The translations under genes and the position numbers were made by a program. Below the pieces are notes generated by a model that saw only the letters and a list, made by a program, of their open reading frames with translations, was not told the origin of the DNA and ran no database searches. 64,000 nt of DNA from Arthrobacter sp. SLBN-122 (GTDB lineage: Bacteria; Actinomycetota; Actinomycetes; Actinomycetales; Micrococcaceae). Numbering within the stretch: the first letter of the stretch is position 1; every line of letters begins with the position of its first letter. Below are positions 1 through 7,531 of the stretch, piece by piece. The stretch covers positions 4,154,001-4,218,000 of the forward strand of contig NZ_VFMS01000001.1 of NCBI RefSeq assembly GCF_006715165.1. Direction: 5' to 3'.

Positions 1-267
1 CCCCTTCTGGCGCAGGTAGCGGGCCACCACGTCACCCATGGCGAACGCTTCGGCGTGGCCCATGTGCAGGTCACCGGAGGGGTACGGGAACATGTCAAGC
101 ACGTAGCGGCGCTCCCGGGACCCGTCGTCCACCGGGGTGAAGACCTTGAGGTCTTCCCACACCTGGGGCCATTTGGCCTCCATGGCGGTGAAACTGTAGG
201 TGCCCTCTTCAGGCTCCGCCGATACTGTTGTTGCTGTTCCGGTCTCTGTCTCCGGCTGAACGCCCAC
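1..267 (-). CDS. leuS: Leucyl-tRNA synthetase, N-terminal part (runs off the left edge)
   Basis: Class I aminoacyl-tRNA synthetase that charges tRNA-Leu in the cytoplasm. The 89 visible codons contain [11 protein letters not shown] and then [16 protein letters not shown], which carries the HIGH-type ATP-binding signature (HMGH) of LeuRS. A GTG at 267 is taken as start because GAAGAGGG lies just upstream; the frame stays open further upstream but has no better start. A roughly 30-residue non-conserved leader precedes the catalytic core, as in other actinobacterial LeuRS. The rest of the gene lies outside the window. A leucine-codon leader peptide and an intrinsic terminator sit upstream, so expression is probably attenuated by charged tRNA-Leu. 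Confidence 0.95.
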
Positions 268-357
268 TGCTGCCCTCTTCTGTTCTGTTACGGCATCTGT
301 GCTGCCATAACGGCCTGATCCTCCTGCTGCCGGTCCGGTGCAATGCCCCGGACACAC

Positions 358-383
358 AAAAGCCCCTCGCCAAGGGAGGGGCT
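358..383 (-). terminator. Intrinsic terminator inside the leuS leader
   Basis: On the minus strand an 8-bp perfect stem, AGCCCCTC pairing with GAGGGGCT around a 7-base loop, is followed directly by TTTTGTGTGT. It lies between the leader peptide and leuS, about 90 bases before the leuS start, so it can only act on leuS transcription. Its 5' arm overlaps a weaker alternative hairpin at 375-398, the arrangement expected of an attenuator. Confidence 0.75.
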
Positions 384-417
384 GCCGCTCAGCTGTCCTA
401 TATTCGGAGCCGGCGGC
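375..417 (-). promoter_or_regulatory. Alternative leader RNA hairpins (protector and antiterminator) before leuS
   Basis: Two further pairings can be drawn on the minus strand. A protector pairs GCCGC (417-413) with GCGGC (388-384), with an inner GCT/AGC. An antiterminator pairs GGA (398-396) with TCC (377-375) and GCTG (393-390) with CAGC (384-381), burying the 5' arm of the terminator. The two exclude each other. A ribosome stalled on the Leu codons at 431-423 would cover 417-413 and favour the antiterminator. This is inference from base pairing by eye; no folding energy was computed. Confidence 0.5.
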
Positions 418-443
418 TAACTAAGCAGAAGGATCGCACGCAT
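417..443 (-). CDS. Leucine-rich leader peptide MRAILLLS upstream of leuS
   Basis: A nine-codon reading frame encodes Met-Arg-Ala-Ile-Leu-Leu-Leu-Ser and then TAG. Three consecutive Leu codons (CTT CTG CTT) come right before the stop. It lies 34 bases upstream of a terminator hairpin that precedes leuS. Leader peptides rich in the regulated amino acid are the sensing element in ribosome-mediated attenuation, known in Actinobacteria for branched-chain and tryptophan operons. No good Shine-Dalgarno is visible. A TAAAGT -10-like hexamer ends six bases before the ATG, so the transcript may be leaderless and start at this ATG. Confidence 0.6.
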
Positions 444-449
444 GGATCT

Positions 450-455
450 ACTTTA
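450..455 (-). promoter_or_regulatory. Candidate -10 element for the leuS transcript
   Basis: TAAAGT on the minus strand fits the actinobacterial TANNNT -10 pattern and ends six bases before the leader-peptide ATG, a spacing that would give a leaderless mRNA. No convincing -35 is visible 16-18 bases upstream. Confidence 0.4.
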
Positions 456-2217: not shown

Positions 2218-3732
2218 CTAGCGCACGTCCTCGTCGACCCACTCCATGGACTTGGTGACGGCCTTCTTCCAAAGCCGCATCTGGCGGTCCTGTTCAGCCT
2301 TGTCCATCTGCGGTTCCCAGCGCTTGTCCTCGGACCAGTTGGCGGAGCATTCCCCGAGGTCCTTCCAGAAACCCACGGCCAGTCCTGCCGCGTAGGCAGC
2401 CCCCAGTGCCGTGGTTTCAATGACCTTGGGGCGGATGACCGGGACGCCCAGGATGTCGGCCTGGAACTGCATGAGCGCGTCATTGGCCACCATGCCGCCG
2501 TCGACCTTCAACTCACTCAGCGGCACGCCTGAGTCGGCGTTGACCGCGTCCAGCACCTCGCGGGTCTGGAACGCGGTGGCCTCCAGAGCGGCCCGGGCGA
2601 TGTGGTTCTTGTTGACGAACCGGGTGAGGCCCACGATCGCGCCGCGGGCGTCGGAGCGCCAGTACGGGGCGAACAGGCCGGAGAACGCGGGGACGATGTA
2701 CACGCCGCCGTTGTCCTTGACCGACGCGGCAAGGGTTTCCACCTCCGGTGCGCTGCTGATCATGCCCAGGTTGTCGCGGAGCCACTGGATCAGCGAGCCG
2801 GTGACGGCGATGGATCCTTCGAGGGCGTAGTGCGGCTTGGCGTCGCCCAGCTTGTACCCCACCGTGGTGAGGAGCCCGTTCTTCGAGTGGACGATTTCCT
2901 CGCCCGTGTTGAAGATCAGGAAGCAGCCCGTACCGTAGGTGTTCTTCGCTTCGCCGGCGTCGAAGGCGGCCTGCCCGAAGGTTGCGGCCTGCTGGTCGCC
3001 AAGGATGCCGGCCACCGGCGTCTCGCGGAGCAGCTGGGAGCTGTGGACGGTGCCGTACACCTCGGAGGAGGACTTGATCTCCGGCATCATGCTGCGGGGC
3101 ACGCCGAAAATGCGCAGGATTTCGTCGTCCCACTGCAGCGTCTCGAGGTCCATGAACAGGGTCCGGGAGGCGTTGGTGACGTCGGTGACATGGACGCCGC
3201 CGTCCACTCCGCCGGTCAGGTTCCACAGGACCCAGGCGTCGGTGTTGCCAAAGACCAGGTCCCCGGCCTCTGCCTTTTTCCGCGCGCCGTCAACGTTGTC
3301 CAGGATCCATTTGATCTTGGTGCCGGAGAAGTAGGTGGCCAGCGGCAGGCCCACTTTCTGTTTGAAGCGGTCCGCACCGCCGTCCCTGCCCAGTTCGTCC
3401 ACGATGTCCTGGGTACGGGTGTCCTGCCACACGATGGCGTTGTACACCGGTTTGCCGGTGGTCTTGTCCCAGACCACCGCGGTTTCGCGCTGGTTGGTGA
3501 TGCCCACGGCGGCAATGTCGTGCCGCGTCAGGTTCGCCTTTGAGAGGGCTGAGCCGATGACCTCACGGGTGTTGTTCCAGATTTCCGTGGCGTCGTGCTC
3601 CACCCACCCTGCCTGCGGGAAGATCTGCTCGTGTTCCATCTGGCCGGAGGAGACAATGGCGCCGCTGTGGTCGAAGATGATGGCGCGGGTGCTGGTGGTG
3701 CCCTGGTCGATGGCGATTACGTACTGGTTCAT
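2218..3732 (-). CDS. glpK: Glycerol kinase
   Basis: ATP:glycerol 3-phosphotransferase of the FGGY carbohydrate kinase family, 504 residues, the usual length. The N-terminus [16 protein letters not shown] holds the phosphate-binding loop, and [12 protein letters not shown] matches glycerol kinases closely. [11 protein letters not shown] and [19 protein letters not shown] are the conserved C-terminal-domain motifs. It is the last gene of the glpD-glpF-glpK block. It traps glycerol imported by the facilitator as glycerol-3-phosphate, the substrate of GlpD. The ATG at 3732 gives the canonical [11 protein letters not shown] start. Confidence 0.97.
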
Positions 3733-3773
3733 GATGACGTCCTTGTCTTGTTAATGGCTGAGGTGAGTACGGG

Positions 3774-4523
3774 TCAGGAAGCGGCCGTGATGATGATCGG
3801 GACAATCCGGGCGACGAGTCCGCCCAGGGCTCCGCCTACAAGCGGGCCAACCACAGGAATCCATGAATAACTCCAGTCACTGGAGCCTTTGCCCCTGATG
3901 GGAAGCACTGCGTGGGCGATGCGGGGTCCCAGGTCGCGGGCGGGGTTAATGGCGTAGCCGGTGGGGCCGCCGAGGGAAACACCGATACCGACGACGAGCA
4001 GCGCCACTGCCAGCGGGCCGAGCCCCGAGGGGGTACCGCCGAGGGTGAGGATGACGAAGACCAGCACAAAAGTACCGATGATTTCGGTGATCAGGTTCCA
4101 TGGGGTGGACCGGATGGCAGGGCCGGTGGAAAAGGTCCCGAGCTTGCCTGCAGGCTCCGGCTCGTCGTCGAAGTGCTGCTTGTAGGCCAGCCAGCAGACC
4201 ACGGCGCCAAGGAATGCACCCACCATCTCGCCCCCGAAGTAGGTGAGGGTGGAAGCGAAGTCTACGGTGACTCCCGGCGCATACTCAGCCTTGCCGTTGA
4301 GCAGCAGGCCGAGCGTGACGGCAGGGTTCAGGTGCGCGCCCGACTTGGCGGCGACGAAGACACCACAGAAGACGGCAATGCCCCATCCCCAAGTGACCAT
4401 CAGGAAGCCGCCACTGTTGCCTTTTGTCCCCCGCAAAGCCACATTGGCAACGACGCCGCAACCCAACAGGGTCAGCATGCCCGTGCCAAAGACTTCGGAG
4501 AGGAAGACTATTCCTAGAGACAT
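3774..4523 (-). CDS. glpF: Glycerol uptake facilitator (aquaglyceroporin, MIP family)
   Basis: A 249-residue integral membrane channel with the two half-helix NPA boxes, HLNPAVTLG and AINPARDLGPR. The Asp after the second NPAR is typical of glycerol facilitators rather than strict aquaporins. About six membrane segments are visible. I prefer the ATG at 4523, preceded by GGAG, giving MSLGIVFLSEVFGTGML; an in-frame ATG at 4535 would add four residues. It lies 41 bases before glpK and 93 bases after glpD in the direction of transcription, consistent with a glycerol uptake operon. Confidence 0.95.
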   Translation of the reverse strand: MSLGIVFLSEVFGTGMLTLLGCGVVANVALRGTKGNSGGFLMVTWGWGIAVFCGVFVAAKSGAHLNPAVTLGLLLNGKAEYAPGVTVDFASTLTYFGGEMVGAFLGAVVCWLAYKQHFDDEPEPAGKLGTFSTGPAIRSTPWNLITEIIGTFVLVFVILTLGGTPSGLGPLAVALLVVGIGVSLGGPTGYAINPARDLGPRIAHAVLPIRGKGSSDWSYSWIPVVGPLVGGALGGLVARIVPIIITAAS

Positions 4524-4525
4524 CT

Positions 4526-4537
4526 TTGACTCCATTT
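4526..4537 (-). promoter_or_regulatory. AAATGGAGTCAA box upstream of glpF, also found upstream of the regulator
   Basis: The 12-mer AAATGGAGTCAA overlaps the glpF start region and recurs exactly at 6521-6532 before the SorC-type regulator. It could be a shared operator or chance; there is no direct evidence of binding. Confidence 0.25.
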
Positions 4538-4578
4538 CTTTGTTTAGTTGTCGGTCCTCCGCGGGTGAAGGACCGTGT

Positions 4579-4604
4579 GGCCGGGACGCTGTAACGCCCC
4601 GGCC
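4579..4604. terminator. Hairpin between glpD and glpF
   Basis: GGCCGGG pairs with CCCGGCC across an imperfect inner stem in the gap between two genes of the same operon. There is no T-tract. It could be a partial terminator or an mRNA-stability element that sets glpD apart from glpFK. Confidence 0.35.
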
Positions 4605-4616
4605 GGAAACCTGGCC

Positions 4617-6440
4617 TTAGGCGACCAGGCTGTGCGTTTCCACACGGTGGAAACGCTGCAGCACGTCCTGTGCGTGCTTGATCTCCGCAGCGCGCGCCGC
4701 CGCGTCCCACTTGAGCGGGACGGACAGAACTTCCGCCACTTCGTTGAGGAGTTCACCGGTAACCAGCCCGCGGAAGGCCAGGGAGGTACGCCGGATAAGG
4801 ACATCCACCAGGTGCCCCACCTGCTCGTTGGCCGCCATGAATTCCAGTTCGCGGACACTGAGTTCGCGGGTGGAGCGCAGCGCGTGGTCAGGCTCGGCAT
4901 CGAGGTAGGCGATCACCTCTTCGGCCCGGGTCCCATAACGGGTCAGCAGCCCGGCCGTGCGGTCTGCATCGCGCCCGGACGCCATGTGCGCCTTGATCCA
5001 CTTCTGCACGCCGGCTTCGTCGGCAGGGAAGCCGGCGCCACCGCCGATGGGCAGTTGGGCGGTGGACACTTTGCGCTGCACGCCCAGTTCGCTGAGGACA
5101 TCGTTGGTGAGGTGCTCCGCGAGGGCACGGAAGGTGGTCCACTTGCCGCCCACCAGGCTCAGCACGACGGCGCCGCTTCCGTCGGGTGCGGAGGTGCGGC
5201 GTTCGATGCGGTAGTCACGGGAGACGAAGCCGGGCTGGGTGGCGTCATGGCTGGGCAGGGGGCGGACGCCCGAGAACGTGTAGACGATGTCGTCAGGGGT
5301 GACGTCGATTGAGGGGAAGACGTGGCCGATCAGGTCGAAGAAGTACTGGATCTCCTCGTCGGTGCACACAGCGTCCTCCGACATGTCCGCGTCAACGTCC
5401 GTGGTGCCTACAAGCACGCGGTCCCCCATCGGGTAGATGAGGACGATCCGGCCGTCGGTGTGCTCAAAGAAGATTTCCCGGCCGCGGCAGGCGGCGAGGA
5501 GGCCGGGGTGGTCCAGTACGATGTGGGAGCCCTTGGTGCCTCCCATGAAGGATGAGGCCGCGCCCATTGCACCGTTGGTGAGGTCAACCCACGCCCCGGT
5601 GGTGTTGATGATGATGTCCGCCGTGAAGTCGAATTCCTCGCCGGTGAGTTCGTCGCGAAGGCGGACAGTACTTCCCCGCCCGGTCCCCGGATTGGGAACC
5701 GGCGACATGGACTGCAGCGAGAGGTAGTTGCTGGCGCGGGCCGTATCGCCCTGGGCACTGGTGCTCTCCGGGGTCCCCGGACGGCCGGCCTTTTCGCCAT
5801 CCTGCAGGACGTCCAGGGTCAGCCGCTCGGGATTGTGGACCGAAGCATCGAAATAGGTGGCGGTGTACTTGACGTCCGGCCGCAGGGCAGGCAGTTCCTG
5901 CAGGGCCGCCTTATGGGTCCGGAACTGGTGCCGCGGCACCGTCCCGCCGTCCCTGGAGAAAGAATCATAGAGGCTGAGGCCGAGCTTGATGAGGAACGCC
6001 CCGCGCTCCTTCGGCTTGCCCTGCTGCTTGTGGGTCAGGAAGCGCAGCGGCGCCGAGAGGACGCCGGAGAATGTGCTGAAGATCGGGATGGTTGTTTGCA
6101 GGGGCTTGACGTAGTGCGGGGCAATCCTGAGCAGGCGGTTGCGTTCCACCACCGACTCGCGGACCAGGCGGAACTCGCCGTTTTCGAGGTACCGGATGCC
6201 GCCATGGATCATGTGCGAGGAAGCGCCGCTTGCTCCCTGGCAGTAGTCACCGCGCTCCACCAGGGCTACATCCACGCCCTGCAGCGCCAGGTCACGGAAT
6301 GTCCCCACTCCGTTGATGCCACCACCTACCACCAGCACTTTCGCATGGGGGCGCCGCCGCAGGTTGTGGACCGACGCGCGTTCGGCTCCGGGGCGGGGCG
6401 CTGAAACAGGGGGTTGAACAGTTGAATCCTTGGGTCCCAA
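4617..6440 (-). CDS. glpD: Aerobic glycerol-3-phosphate dehydrogenase (FAD)
   Basis: A 607-residue FAD enzyme oxidising glycerol-3-phosphate to dihydroxyacetone phosphate with electrons passed to the respiratory chain. VLVVGGGINGVGTFRDLALQG is the dinucleotide-binding motif, and DYCQGASGASSHMIHGGIRYLE is a GlpD signature. A roughly 30-residue basic, proline-containing leader precedes the fold, and an insert around residues 220-250 is rich in Gly, Ser and Thr. The TTG start at 6440 follows AAGGGAG by seven bases. It is the first gene of glpD-glpF-glpK and is divergent from a SorC-family regulator that probably controls it. Confidence 0.95.
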   Translation of the reverse strand: MGPKDSTVQPPVSAPRPGAERASVHNLRRRPHAKVLVVGGGINGVGTFRDLALQGVDVALVERGDYCQGASGASSHMIHGGIRYLENGEFRLVRESVVERNRLLRIAPHYVKPLQTTIPIFSTFSGVLSAPLRFLTHKQQGKPKERGAFLIKLGLSLYDSFSRDGGTVPRHQFRTHKAALQELPALRPDVKYTATYFDASVHNPERLTLDVLQDGEKAGRPGTPESTSAQGDTARASNYLSLQSMSPVPNPGTGRGSTVRLRDELTGEEFDFTADIIINTTGAWVDLTNGAMGAASSFMGGTKGSHIVLDHPGLLAACRGREIFFEHTDGRIVLIYPMGDRVLVGTTDVDADMSEDAVCTDEEIQYFFDLIGHVFPSIDVTPDDIVYTFSGVRPLPSHDATQPGFVSRDYRIERRTSAPDGSGAVVLSLVGGKWTTFRALAEHLTNDVLSELGVQRKVSTAQLPIGGGAGFPADEAGVQKWIKAHMASGRDADRTAGLLTRYGTRAEEVIAYLDAEPDHALRSTRELSVRELEFMAANEQVGHLVDVLIRRTSLAFRGLVTGELLNEVAEVLSVPLKWDAAARAAEIKHAQDVLQRFHRVETHSLVA

Positions 6441-6499
6441 AACGACTCCCTTGGGGCTTTGTGTGATGCGGTCACCGCTGGATGGCGCCGCCGTTCTGC

Positions 6500-6536
6500 T
6501 CTATTGTTCGGAGAAATGGAAAATGGAGTCAAGGAC
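6500..6536 (-). promoter_or_regulatory. Candidate glpD promoter
   Basis: On the minus strand TTGACT is followed after 18 bases by AACAAT, which together resemble a housekeeping -35/-10 pair. The start of glpD lies about 60 bases downstream. A palindrome at 6539-6552 sits immediately upstream of the -35. Confidence 0.4.
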
Positions 6537-6538
6537 TA

Positions 6539-6552
6539 TGCACGAATGTGCA
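6539..6552. promoter_or_regulatory. Palindromic operator candidate TGCACGAATGTGCA
   Basis: A perfect inverted repeat (TGCAC, four bases, GTGCA) lies in the divergent glpD/regulator promoter region, next to the glpD -35 and 14 bases before the regulator ATG. It is well placed for autoregulation and glp control by the SorC-type protein; this is inference from position. Confidence 0.4.
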
Positions 6553-6565
6553 GTTGGGAACTGAG

Positions 6566-7531
6566 ATGGGACTTTCACGCGACGCAGATGCCCTCCGAGC
6601 TGCACAAATGTATTACCTGCAGGACCTGACCATGGACGCGATTGCCCGGGAACTGCACACCTCCCGCTCCACGGTTTCCCGCCTGTTGTCCTCGGCAAGG
6701 GAATCGGGTTTGGTGCAAATCCAGATCCGCAACCCGCTGGACACGGGTCCCGAGCTGGAGGGGATGATCCGGCGCCGGTACAACCTGGACGTCCACGTGG
6801 TCCCCATCCTTGGGACGCTCAACGAAGCCGAAACCCTGGACCGCGTAGCCATGCAGGCGGCACGCACCATTGGACCCCTGGTGGACTCGAACGCCATCAT
6901 TGGCGTGGCCTGGGGATCGACGCTCAGTGCCGTCAGCCGGCATCTCACCAGGAAGATCACGCACGACAGCGTCATCGTCCAGCTCAATGGTGCCGGAAAC
7001 ATGCACACCACGGGCATCACCTACGCAAGCGACATCATGCGCAGGTTCGGCAGCGCCTACGGGGCACGGGTGGAGCAGTTCCCCGTTCCGGCCTTCTTCG
7101 ACCATGCGGCCACCAAGACGGCCATGTGGAATGAACGCAGCGTGCAGCGGGTCCTGGAACTGCAGGCCAAAATGAGCATCGCCATTTTCGGCGTGGGTTC
7201 GGTCCACGCCGACTATCCGAGCCACGTCTACGCGGGCGGGTACCTGGATGAGGACGACCTGAACGCACTGGCCAAATCGGACGTGGTGGGCGACGTTGCC
7301 ACCGTCTTTTTCCGGGCCGACGGTTCCTCCGACGGCATTGTCCTGAACGAAAGGTCCACCGGGCCGGCACTTGCCCAACTCCGCCAGGTCCGCCGCAGGA
7401 TCTGCGTGGTGTCCGGGGTTTCCAAGATCAACGGGCTCCGAGGAGCCCTGGCAGCCAGGCTGGCCACCGACCTGATCCTGGACGAAGCCACCGCACGGCG
7501 CCTGATCGATTACGAGGGACTGACCAGCTGA
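6566..7531 (+). CDS. SorC/DeoR-type sugar-binding transcriptional regulator
   Basis: A 321-residue regulator. An N-terminal helix-turn-helix (MYYLQDLTMDAIARELHTSR followed by STVSRLLSSA) is joined to a SorC-family sugar-phosphate sensing domain covering the rest; GVAWGSTLSAVSRHL and the SKINGLRGALAARLATDLILDE region are typical. I chose the ATG at 6566 because it begins the conserved MGLSRDADALRAAQ N-terminus; the frame is open upstream, and a GTG at 6548 is possible. It is divergent from glpDFK, so it probably responds to glycerol-3-phosphate or a related phosphate ester. That ligand is inferred from context only. Confidence 0.85.
   Translation: MGLSRDADALRAAQMYYLQDLTMDAIARELHTSRSTVSRLLSSARESGLVQIQIRNPLDTGPELEGMIRRRYNLDVHVVPILGTLNEAETLDRVAMQAARTIGPLVDSNAIIGVAWGSTLSAVSRHLTRKITHDSVIVQLNGAGNMHTTGITYASDIMRRFGSAYGARVEQFPVPAFFDHAATKTAMWNERSVQRVLELQAKMSIAIFGVGSVHADYPSHVYAGGYLDEDDLNALAKSDVVGDVATVFFRADGSSDGIVLNERSTGPALAQLRQVRRRICVVSGVSKINGLRGALAARLATDLILDEATARRLIDYEGLTS

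What the first reader, a model, noticed from the sequence alone, without database searches (positions are those of the whole stretch)
358..455. Predicted leucine-sensing attenuator controlling leuS
Seen directly: a -10-like TAAAGT, a nine-codon frame encoding MRAILLLS with three consecutive Leu codons, and a terminator with a T-run, all before leuS on the same strand. Two further hairpins (417-384 and 398-375) exclude each other and the terminator in the order needed for attenuation. Known: leader-peptide attenuation in Actinobacteria is described mainly for branched-chain and tryptophan biosynthesis. Inference: leuS is switched on when charged tRNA-Leu is scarce, and the leader peptide itself may be translated from a leaderless start.
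Basis: partly seen in the sequence, partly recalled or inferred. Interest (0 to 1): 0.7.

Follow-up and report, generated by a model that had tools for sequence, protein, structure and literature searches.

The report
Leucine-sensing leader before leuS
A very short leucine-rich reading frame and a transcription stop signal sit before the gene for leucyl-tRNA synthetase and probably let the cell make more of this enzyme when leucine runs short; this kind of switch is known from Streptomyces, but the second RNA hairpin that such switches normally need seems to be built differently here.

Summary
All 40 leuS loci examined from the genus carry the leader. P1 is supported by compensatory changes. 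A covariance model also finds leaders encoding MRAVRLLLSEPR, the peptide reported as leaderless before leuS in S. lividans (PMC8079986); leuS attenuators were predicted in Streptomyces in 2005 (PMC1262725). So this is a new member of a known kind. Instead P1 lies 0-2 nt from the terminator (66 of 69 and 77 of 78 loci, in a search that favoured short gaps) and begins about where a ribosome stalled at the first Leu codon should end. I infer that P1 is a non-overlapping antiterminator, melted when the ribosome reaches the stop codon. Nothing here shows a response to leucine.

The parts
450..455 (-). -10 element TAAAGT, six nucleotides before the leader start codon; implies a transcript that begins at the ATG
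   Evidence: sequence; spacing 6 nt in all 38 genus loci that the parser accepted and in 72 of 77 accepted loci, 7 nt in 5 (the parser favoured 6). In 80 named loci, with no such preference: 6 nt in 73, 7 nt in 5, none found in 2
417..443 (-). leader [12 protein letters not shown], Leu codons CTT CTG CTT
   Evidence: 31 of 40 genus loci read MRAILLLS, 9 differ by one or two residues or run on past a lost stop codon
384..417 (-). P1 hairpin; 5' arm starts in the last base of the stop codon, 3' arm abuts the terminator
   Evidence: covariation on alignment A1, 36 doubly changed cells against 9.0 in shuffles; consensus fold; geometry
361..383 (-). terminator hairpin AGCCCCTCC...GAGGGGCT
   Evidence: 5 of its 6 core pairs never vary in 42 aligned sequences
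351..360 (-). U-rich tail TTTGTGTGTC, nearly invariant
   Evidence: alignment A1
273..278 (-). probable Shine-Dalgarno sequence AGAGGG of leuS
   Evidence: position and conservation in the genus, read by eye
1..267 (-). leuS, 5' part, probable GTG start at 267-265; the gene runs off the window
   Evidence: TIGR00396 match G000:C1:4152462-4154198; start inferred by eye from the conserved GTG(A/G)GCGTTCAG in most genus loci

Best explanation
It is a ribosome-mediated, leucine-responsive transcription attenuator of leuS. Transcription starts at the leader ATG and a ribosome initiates on this leaderless end (inferred from the -10 spacing; reported only for the S. lividans homologue). If leucyl-tRNA is plentiful, the ribosome runs to the stop codon and melts P1, and transcription ends at 383-361. 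If leucyl-tRNA is scarce, the ribosome stalls at the first Leu codon, P1 stays folded directly against the terminator, and more polymerases read into leuS. That P1 is the element switched by the ribosome is inferred from geometry and conservation; that it hinders the terminator by its position and not by competing pairing is my preferred but weaker inference.
For: Leader, P1 and terminator before leuS in the genus: 40 of 40 loci examined have the leader (40 of the 43 genus genomes with a match); a LLL leader in 61 of 99 leuS loci examined from genus, family and order. P1 covaries. The covariance model finds 11 genomes of one large-genome genus, 9 with MRAVRLLLSEPR and 2 with a one-residue variant, the S. 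lividans LeuL2 peptide (PMC8079986, passages); and the same layout before leuS in another class (L111, L116, L120, L121, read by eye). Of 80 listed named pattern hits 75 have the LeuS HIGH motif downstream, 4 contigs end too early, 1 lacks it. The Leu run is rich in CTT: 70 of 113 Leu codons in 38 genus leaders against 13% in 215 long ORFs of the own genome. P1 starts 14 nt after the first base of the first Leu codon of the run in 43 of 69 measured loci and 17 nt in 6; it lies 0-2 nt from the terminator in 66 of 69 and 77 of 78, by a search that looked at gaps up to 8 nt and penalised each nt. The consensus fold, made without that penalty, places them equally close.
Against: No expression data in this organism. 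No competing antiterminator was found, so the step from stalled ribosome to read-through is not shown. 19 of 99 leuS loci examined, among them every locus examined from 11 of 30 family genera, have no leader that I could find; 373 of 396 phylum genomes gave no model hit at E 0.01 under strict filters. Several leaders keep the hairpins but have few Leu codons (MNPKRNLV, MSAVLRPS, MVLRPALR) or a broken run (MRAILQLS, MSALELSQPR). Three loci of one genus (MAYFLG) lack P1 (by eye).
Confidence: 0.8

Rival explanations
1. Classical attenuation: a third hairpin (398-375, or another upstream segment) pairs with the terminator's 5' arm when the ribosome stalls and so blocks the terminator.
For: Hairpin 398-375 can be drawn and overlaps both P1 and the terminator. 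In the window's own subclade another fold can use AGCC of the terminator arm before its 3' arm is made. PMC1262725 calls the Streptomyces leuS leaders classical attenuators with an antiterminator (text and legend seen, figure not held).
Against: Upstream pairing of the terminator's 5' arm is weaker than in shuffles: 0 of 68 loci at p<=0.05, mean z +0.46; with five ribosome settings 0 of 58-60 family loci and 0, 0, 0, 0 and 1 of 78 named loci. The same test flags trpL, leuL, thrL and pheM of E. coli in the stalled state, but misses hisL. Hairpin 398-375 exceeds shuffles only slightly.
Confidence: 0.15
2. Direct occlusion or coupling: a ribosome close behind the polymerase keeps the terminator from forming, and P1 is only a pause signal that lets the ribosome catch up.
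For: In the MAYFLG loci (L050, L054, L059) P1 is gone and the terminator's 5' arm overlaps the stop codon (-2 nt), so a ribosome there would cover it.
Against: In most other loci the terminator starts about 20-60 nt beyond the stop codon, out of reach of a ribosome at the Leu codons. A pause hairpin need not abut the terminator.
Confidence: 0.15
3. When the ribosome melts P1, the freed P1 3' arm pairs with the U-rich tail and lengthens the terminator; P1 formation prevents this. P1 and the lengthened terminator exclude each other.
For: Predicted tail pairing rises from 0.15 to 2.49 nt on average in the family when the ribosome is moved to the stop (at least 2 nt in 34 of 58), and from 0.44 to 1.12 nt in named loci (20 of 78; stop position approximated there).
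Against: Mostly G-U pairs, predicted in about six in ten of the family and a quarter of the named loci; it could form only after the tail is made.
Confidence: 0.1
4. LEU-element-like translational control: the Leu codons pair with the ribosome-binding region of leuS.
For: In the window GATCCTTCTGCT can pair over 12 bases with AGCAGGAGGATC between terminator and leuS (duplex). Within the genus the pairing is a little better than shuffles (mean z -0.64).
Against: That stretch is not the likely ribosome-binding site of leuS. Over 72 loci 1 reaches p<=0.05 and the mean z over genera is +0.37.
Confidence: 0.03

Closest known systems
leuS leader of Streptomyces (LeuL2 of S. lividans TK24, MRAVRLLLSEPR; predicted attenuators of S. 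coelicolor and S. avermitilis, PMC1262725)
   Same: Gene, leucine run, leaderless start, P1 in the same place relative to the Leu codons, abutting terminator; found by the covariance model built from the window's family; of 31 named loci with exactly this peptide 30 are titled Streptomyces.
   Different: The window's peptide is shorter and its stop codon lies at the base of P1; in Streptomyces the stop lies within the P1 5' arm. The tail is UUUUGUGUGUC.
E. coli leuL and pheM (leader-peptide attenuators before leuA and pheST)
   Same: Run of codons for the amino acid concerned, intrinsic terminator before the gene.
   Different: They score for an antiterminator that competes for the terminator arm; the actinobacterial leaders do not. 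They are not leaderless (recalled).
LEU element before leuA of Actinobacteria (PMC1262725)
   Same: Leu-rich leader peptide; in this genome VRAELLLLSCRGEATDAI before leuA, with TACCCT 6 nt before its start and a related CTTAGCT stretch.
   Different: Described as a pseudoknot with the Leu codons paired to the Shine-Dalgarno box; the S. lividans leuA leader lacks a typical terminator.
Polycysteine leaderless short ORFs of mycobacteria (Canestrari 2020; title seen only in a reference list; paper not held)
   Same: Leaderless short ORF with a codon run as an amino-acid sensor, by the title.
   Different: Cysteine; other details not seen here.

Membership tests
Actinobacterial leuS leader (Streptomyces LeuL2 kind) | short ORF with a Leu run directly before leuS | tested here: met
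Actinobacterial leuS leader (Streptomyces LeuL2 kind) | leaderless transcript | tested here: inconclusive
   -10 element 6 nt before ATG in the window and most relatives, but no 5' end mapped in this organism
Actinobacterial leuS leader (Streptomyces LeuL2 kind) | intrinsic terminator between ORF and leuS | tested here: met
Actinobacterial leuS leader (Streptomyces LeuL2 kind) | detectable relation to the Streptomyces leader | tested here: met
   model R1 hits 11 genomes of genus f21 g57 (E 9.5e-8 to 8.9e-6); all 11 leaders read out, 9 MRAVRLLLSEPR, 1 MRAVRLLLSGPR, 1 MRAVRLLLTEPR. That this unnamed genus is Streptomyces is inferred from the peptide and genome size
Classical ribosome-mediated attenuator (trp, leu, thr, pheST of E. 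coli) | antiterminator that competes for the terminator's 5' arm when the ribosome stalls | tested here: not met
   0 of 58-60 family and 0-1 of 78 named loci per setting; 4 of 5 controls positive, hisL missed
Classical ribosome-mediated attenuator (trp, leu, thr, pheST of E. coli) | read-through rises when the amino acid is limiting | not testable with these tools
   needs experiment
LEU element | Leu codons paired with the gene's ribosome-binding site | tested here: not met
   pairing at shuffle level outside the genus and slight within it; a terminator is present. The pseudoknot was not tested
T-box and other Rfam families | match above the curated score | tested here: not met
   no Rfam family matches the window at gathering thresholds

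The most novel reading that the evidence does not exclude
Leader-peptide attenuation without a competing antiterminator: P1 stands flush against the terminator, and because the base of a terminator stem must close inside the polymerase, a stable hairpin directly at its 5' foot keeps it from closing. A ribosome that reaches the stop codon melts P1 and frees the terminator; one stalled at the first Leu codon stops just short of P1. The switch is thus steric, works with many P1 sequences (hence covariation at near-constant distance), and occurs in several families and at least two classes of Actinomycetota on leuS, and in one hit before what reads as leuA.
Probability: 0.3. Interest if true: 0.7.

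Novelty: new member of a known kind. Interest (0 to 1): 0.4.

Why it matters
It ties the Streptomyces leuS leader to leaders in the Micrococcaceae and in another class of Actinomycetota as one recognisable element with similar geometry. With positive controls it also shows that the overlapping antiterminator thought to define such attenuators is not detectable here. A minimal switch of about 85 nt, made of a nine-codon frame and two abutting hairpins, would be easy to test and to reuse.

Tried and rejected
Equilibrium folding with the 5' part masked to mimic a ribosome: the terminator forms with probability near 1 in nearly all correctly delimited cases, but the E. coli controls behave the same way, so this test has no power and I do not count it as evidence. 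Many zeros come from wrongly delimited terminators.

Pairing of Leu codons with the stretch before leuS (LEU-like): suggestive in the window, not upheld over 72 loci. Extended P1 overlapping the terminator by AGC: seen by eye in part of the genus, not in other genera (sequences); dropped. The small frame MAAQMP after the terminator is not conserved (by eye). A second model hit in the own genome (E 1.16) shows no leader and is followed by what looks like a tRNA gene (by eye; no tRNA search run); dropped.

Selections and weaknesses. Genus: 40 of 43 genomes with a match were looked at. Other family genera: 52 of 148 genomes with a match, one to five per genus, 29 genera besides the window's. Order: 7 of 22 genomes, those with the best matches. 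Alignment A1 used 42 of the 69 sequences prepared (25 of the genus, 17 of other genera); loci without P1 or with irregular layout were left out, so covariation counts hold for the regular layout. One P1 pair (columns 32-66) is unpaired in 25 of 42. One search measured 70 of 77 loci, one fell under its score cut; a few genus loci were read in a wrong register (offsets 6, 11, 19). Searches searched P1 ends only within 8 nt of the terminator, with a penalty per nt, so the gap counts are biased to small values; the consensus fold is not. Searches used 68, 72 and 58-60 of 77 loci; searches used 78 of 80 named loci, with ORF start and stop set at fixed distances from the last Leu codon and not read from each ORF.

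Full report
What is there. On the minus strand before leuS lie a -10 element TAAAGT (455-450), a nine-codon frame ATG CGT GCG ATC CTT CTG CTT AGT TAG (443-417), a hairpin P1 (417-384), a terminator hairpin (383-361) with the tail TTTGTGTGTC (360-351), and about 85 nt after the tail the probable GTG start of leuS (267) behind AGAGGG. The window lies at G000:C1:4154001-4218000, and the genome has one leuS over the TIGR00396 cut-off. No Rfam family matches the window at gathering thresholds.

Is it more than chance. I scanned 464 kb of the own genome (20 stretches of 20 kb plus the window) for frames of 5-15 codons with TANNNT exactly six nucleotides before ATG or GTG: 7 were found, one with LLL, and that one is this leader, followed by a terminator. 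I then examined 99 leuS loci: 40 of the genus (the window's own included; 43 genus genomes had a match), 52 of other family genera (148 genomes had a match) and 7 of other families of the order. In the genus 40 of 40 have the leader: 31 read MRAILLLS, 6 differ by one or two residues, 3 run on past a lost stop codon. Over all 99, 61 leaders have LLL or more, 12 have two close Leu, 7 have fewer or scattered Leu, and in 19 I found no leader. Twelve of the 30 family genera examined have at least one LLL leader; in 11 genera no locus examined had a leader.

Relatives outside the family. A covariance model from 42 sequences matched 23 of 396 genomes drawn from the phylum, under strict filters. All 11 hits in one large-genome genus read MRAVRLLLSEPR (9) or a one-residue variant (2), the LeuL2 peptide reported as leaderless before leuS in S. 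lividans TK24 (PMC8079986; passages seen). Four hits in another class carry MAAALLLSWPR or similar before a leuS frame (L111, L116, L120, L121; peptides and gene read by eye). One hit (L130) has the same layout before a leuA-like frame, with the leader MTSTLTLLLLS (by eye). L127 has a glutamine-rich peptide with one Leu before leuS; in L131 I did not find the leader, and the offset I looked at was a guess. Of the 80, 75 have the LeuS HIGH motif downstream, 4 end too early and 1 (L198) lacks it; the -10 to start spacing was 6 nt in 73, 7 nt in 5 and not found in 2. All 8 named loci with exactly MRAILLLS are Arthrobacter or Paenarthrobacter, so the window is probably from that group; of 31 with MRAVRLLLSEPR 30 are titled Streptomyces. 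Some named leaders have a broken run, such as MRAILQLS in Pseudarthrobacter sulfonivorans.

The hairpins. On alignment A1 (42 of 69 prepared sequences) P1 and terminator together show 36 cells changed on both sides against 9.0 in shuffles; 7 of the 9 P1 pairs have double changes; 91.7% of cells are paired, against 42-55% for slid versions. One P1 pair is open in 25 of 42 rows, a conserved mismatch. The terminator stem hardly varies and so gives no covariation.

Is there an antiterminator. In a classical attenuator an upstream segment captures the 5' arm of the terminator when the ribosome stalls. I measured the free energy gained when that arm may pair upstream before its own 3' arm is made, and compared it with dinucleotide shuffles of the upstream part. 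With the ribosome at the last Leu codon 0 of 68 loci reach p<=0.05 (mean z +0.46). With five settings (no ribosome, first Leu, last Leu, further on, stop) 0 of 58-60 family loci and 0, 0, 0, 0 and 1 of 78 named loci do (positions approximated in the named set). The same test on E. coli K-12 leaders gives z -3.7 (trpL), -2.6 (leuL), -2.7 (thrL), -2.3 (pheM) and +1.2 (hisL); for the first four the signal vanishes without a ribosome and with one at the stop, as it should. So the test can see antiterminators, though not all, and sees none here. Equilibrium probability of the terminator is near 1 in all states, but so it is in the controls, and I do not use it.

What is constant instead. P1 begins 14 nt after the first base of the first Leu codon of the run in 43 of 69 measured loci, 17 nt in 6 and elsewhere in 20; among the 31 loci outside the genus it is 14 nt in 11 and 17 nt in 6. 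The stop codon moves more: at nt 19 of MKTLLL, nt 25 of MRAILLLS, nt 37 of the longer peptides. P1 lies 0-2 nt from the terminator in 66 of 69 and 77 of 78 loci; both searches looked only within 8 nt and penalised distance, but the consensus fold, which did not, puts the two stems as close. From recalled ribosome footprints (leading edge about 12-14 nt from the first base of the A-site codon) a ribosome waiting at the first Leu codon ends just before P1, and one at the stop codon covers its whole 5' arm.

Interpretation. P1 is the only conserved element besides ORF, terminator and tail, so I take it to be what the ribosome switches: kept when the ribosome waits at the first Leu codon, melted when it reaches the stop. 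Since a synthetase gene should be induced when its charged tRNA is scarce, P1 should oppose termination. It does not seem to do so by competing pairing; its flush position suggests that it hinders closure of the terminator foot in the polymerase. This last step is inference. A milder alternative is that the freed P1 3' arm pairs with the tail and lengthens the terminator. Stalling at the second or third Leu codon would melt the foot of P1, which weakens the steric model, and the MAYFLG loci do without P1.

Codon choice. CTT makes up 13% of Leu codons in 215 long ORFs of the own genome, but 70 of 113 Leu codons in 38 genus leaders; the last Leu codon of the run is CTT in 58 of 65 runs. The loci are related, so these are not independent counts. 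Of PMC1183508, on what makes attenuation sensitive to amino-acid limitation, I saw only the title and the start of the abstract.

Prior work. PMC1262725 (abstract, leucine section and passages read) predicted leuS attenuators in S. coelicolor and S. avermitilis. PMC8079986 (passages read) gives LeuL2. Searches in the held library listed no paper that by title or abstract start reports a Micrococcaceae leuS leader, and search 59 none on an attenuator without an antiterminator; most subscription journals are not held.

Noticed in passing
L050, L054, L059 (one family genus, g49): Leader MAYFLG with one Leu codon; P1 is lost and the terminator's 5' arm overlaps the stop codon, so that a ribosome there would cover it: a possible simpler descendant.
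   Followed up: partly
L009, L015, L055: The leader stop codon is changed to AAG or CAG and the frame runs on to a stop inside P1 ([17 protein letters not shown] and similar).
   Followed up: partly
L130 around 1501: Same layout (leaderless-like MTSTLTLLLLS, hairpin, abutting terminator) before what reads as leuA in a distant small-genome actinobacterium, where a LEU element might be expected.
   Followed up: no
G000:C1, about 168 nt before the leuA match at 4128364 (L152): Leaderless-like VRAELLLLSCRGEATDAI before leuA of the same genome, with TACCCT 6 nt before the start and a CTTAGCTGCCGC stretch like the leuS leader's CTTAGTTAGCCGC; the two leaders may share an origin.
   Followed up: no
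window 311-287, minus strand: A further hairpin GTTATGGCA...TGCCGTAAC between terminator and leuS, by eye with paired changes in some genus loci and absent in others; it overlaps a small frame MAAQMP.
   Followed up: no
L127: leuS leader with similar hairpins but a glutamine-rich peptide VASQQQRLIGPR: the sensed amino acid may have changed or the sensor decayed.
   Followed up: no
window 2218-7531: ORFs that read as glycerol kinase, aquaporin-type facilitator, glycerol-3-phosphate dehydrogenase and a divergent sugar-type regulator (named by eye from the translations).
   Followed up: no
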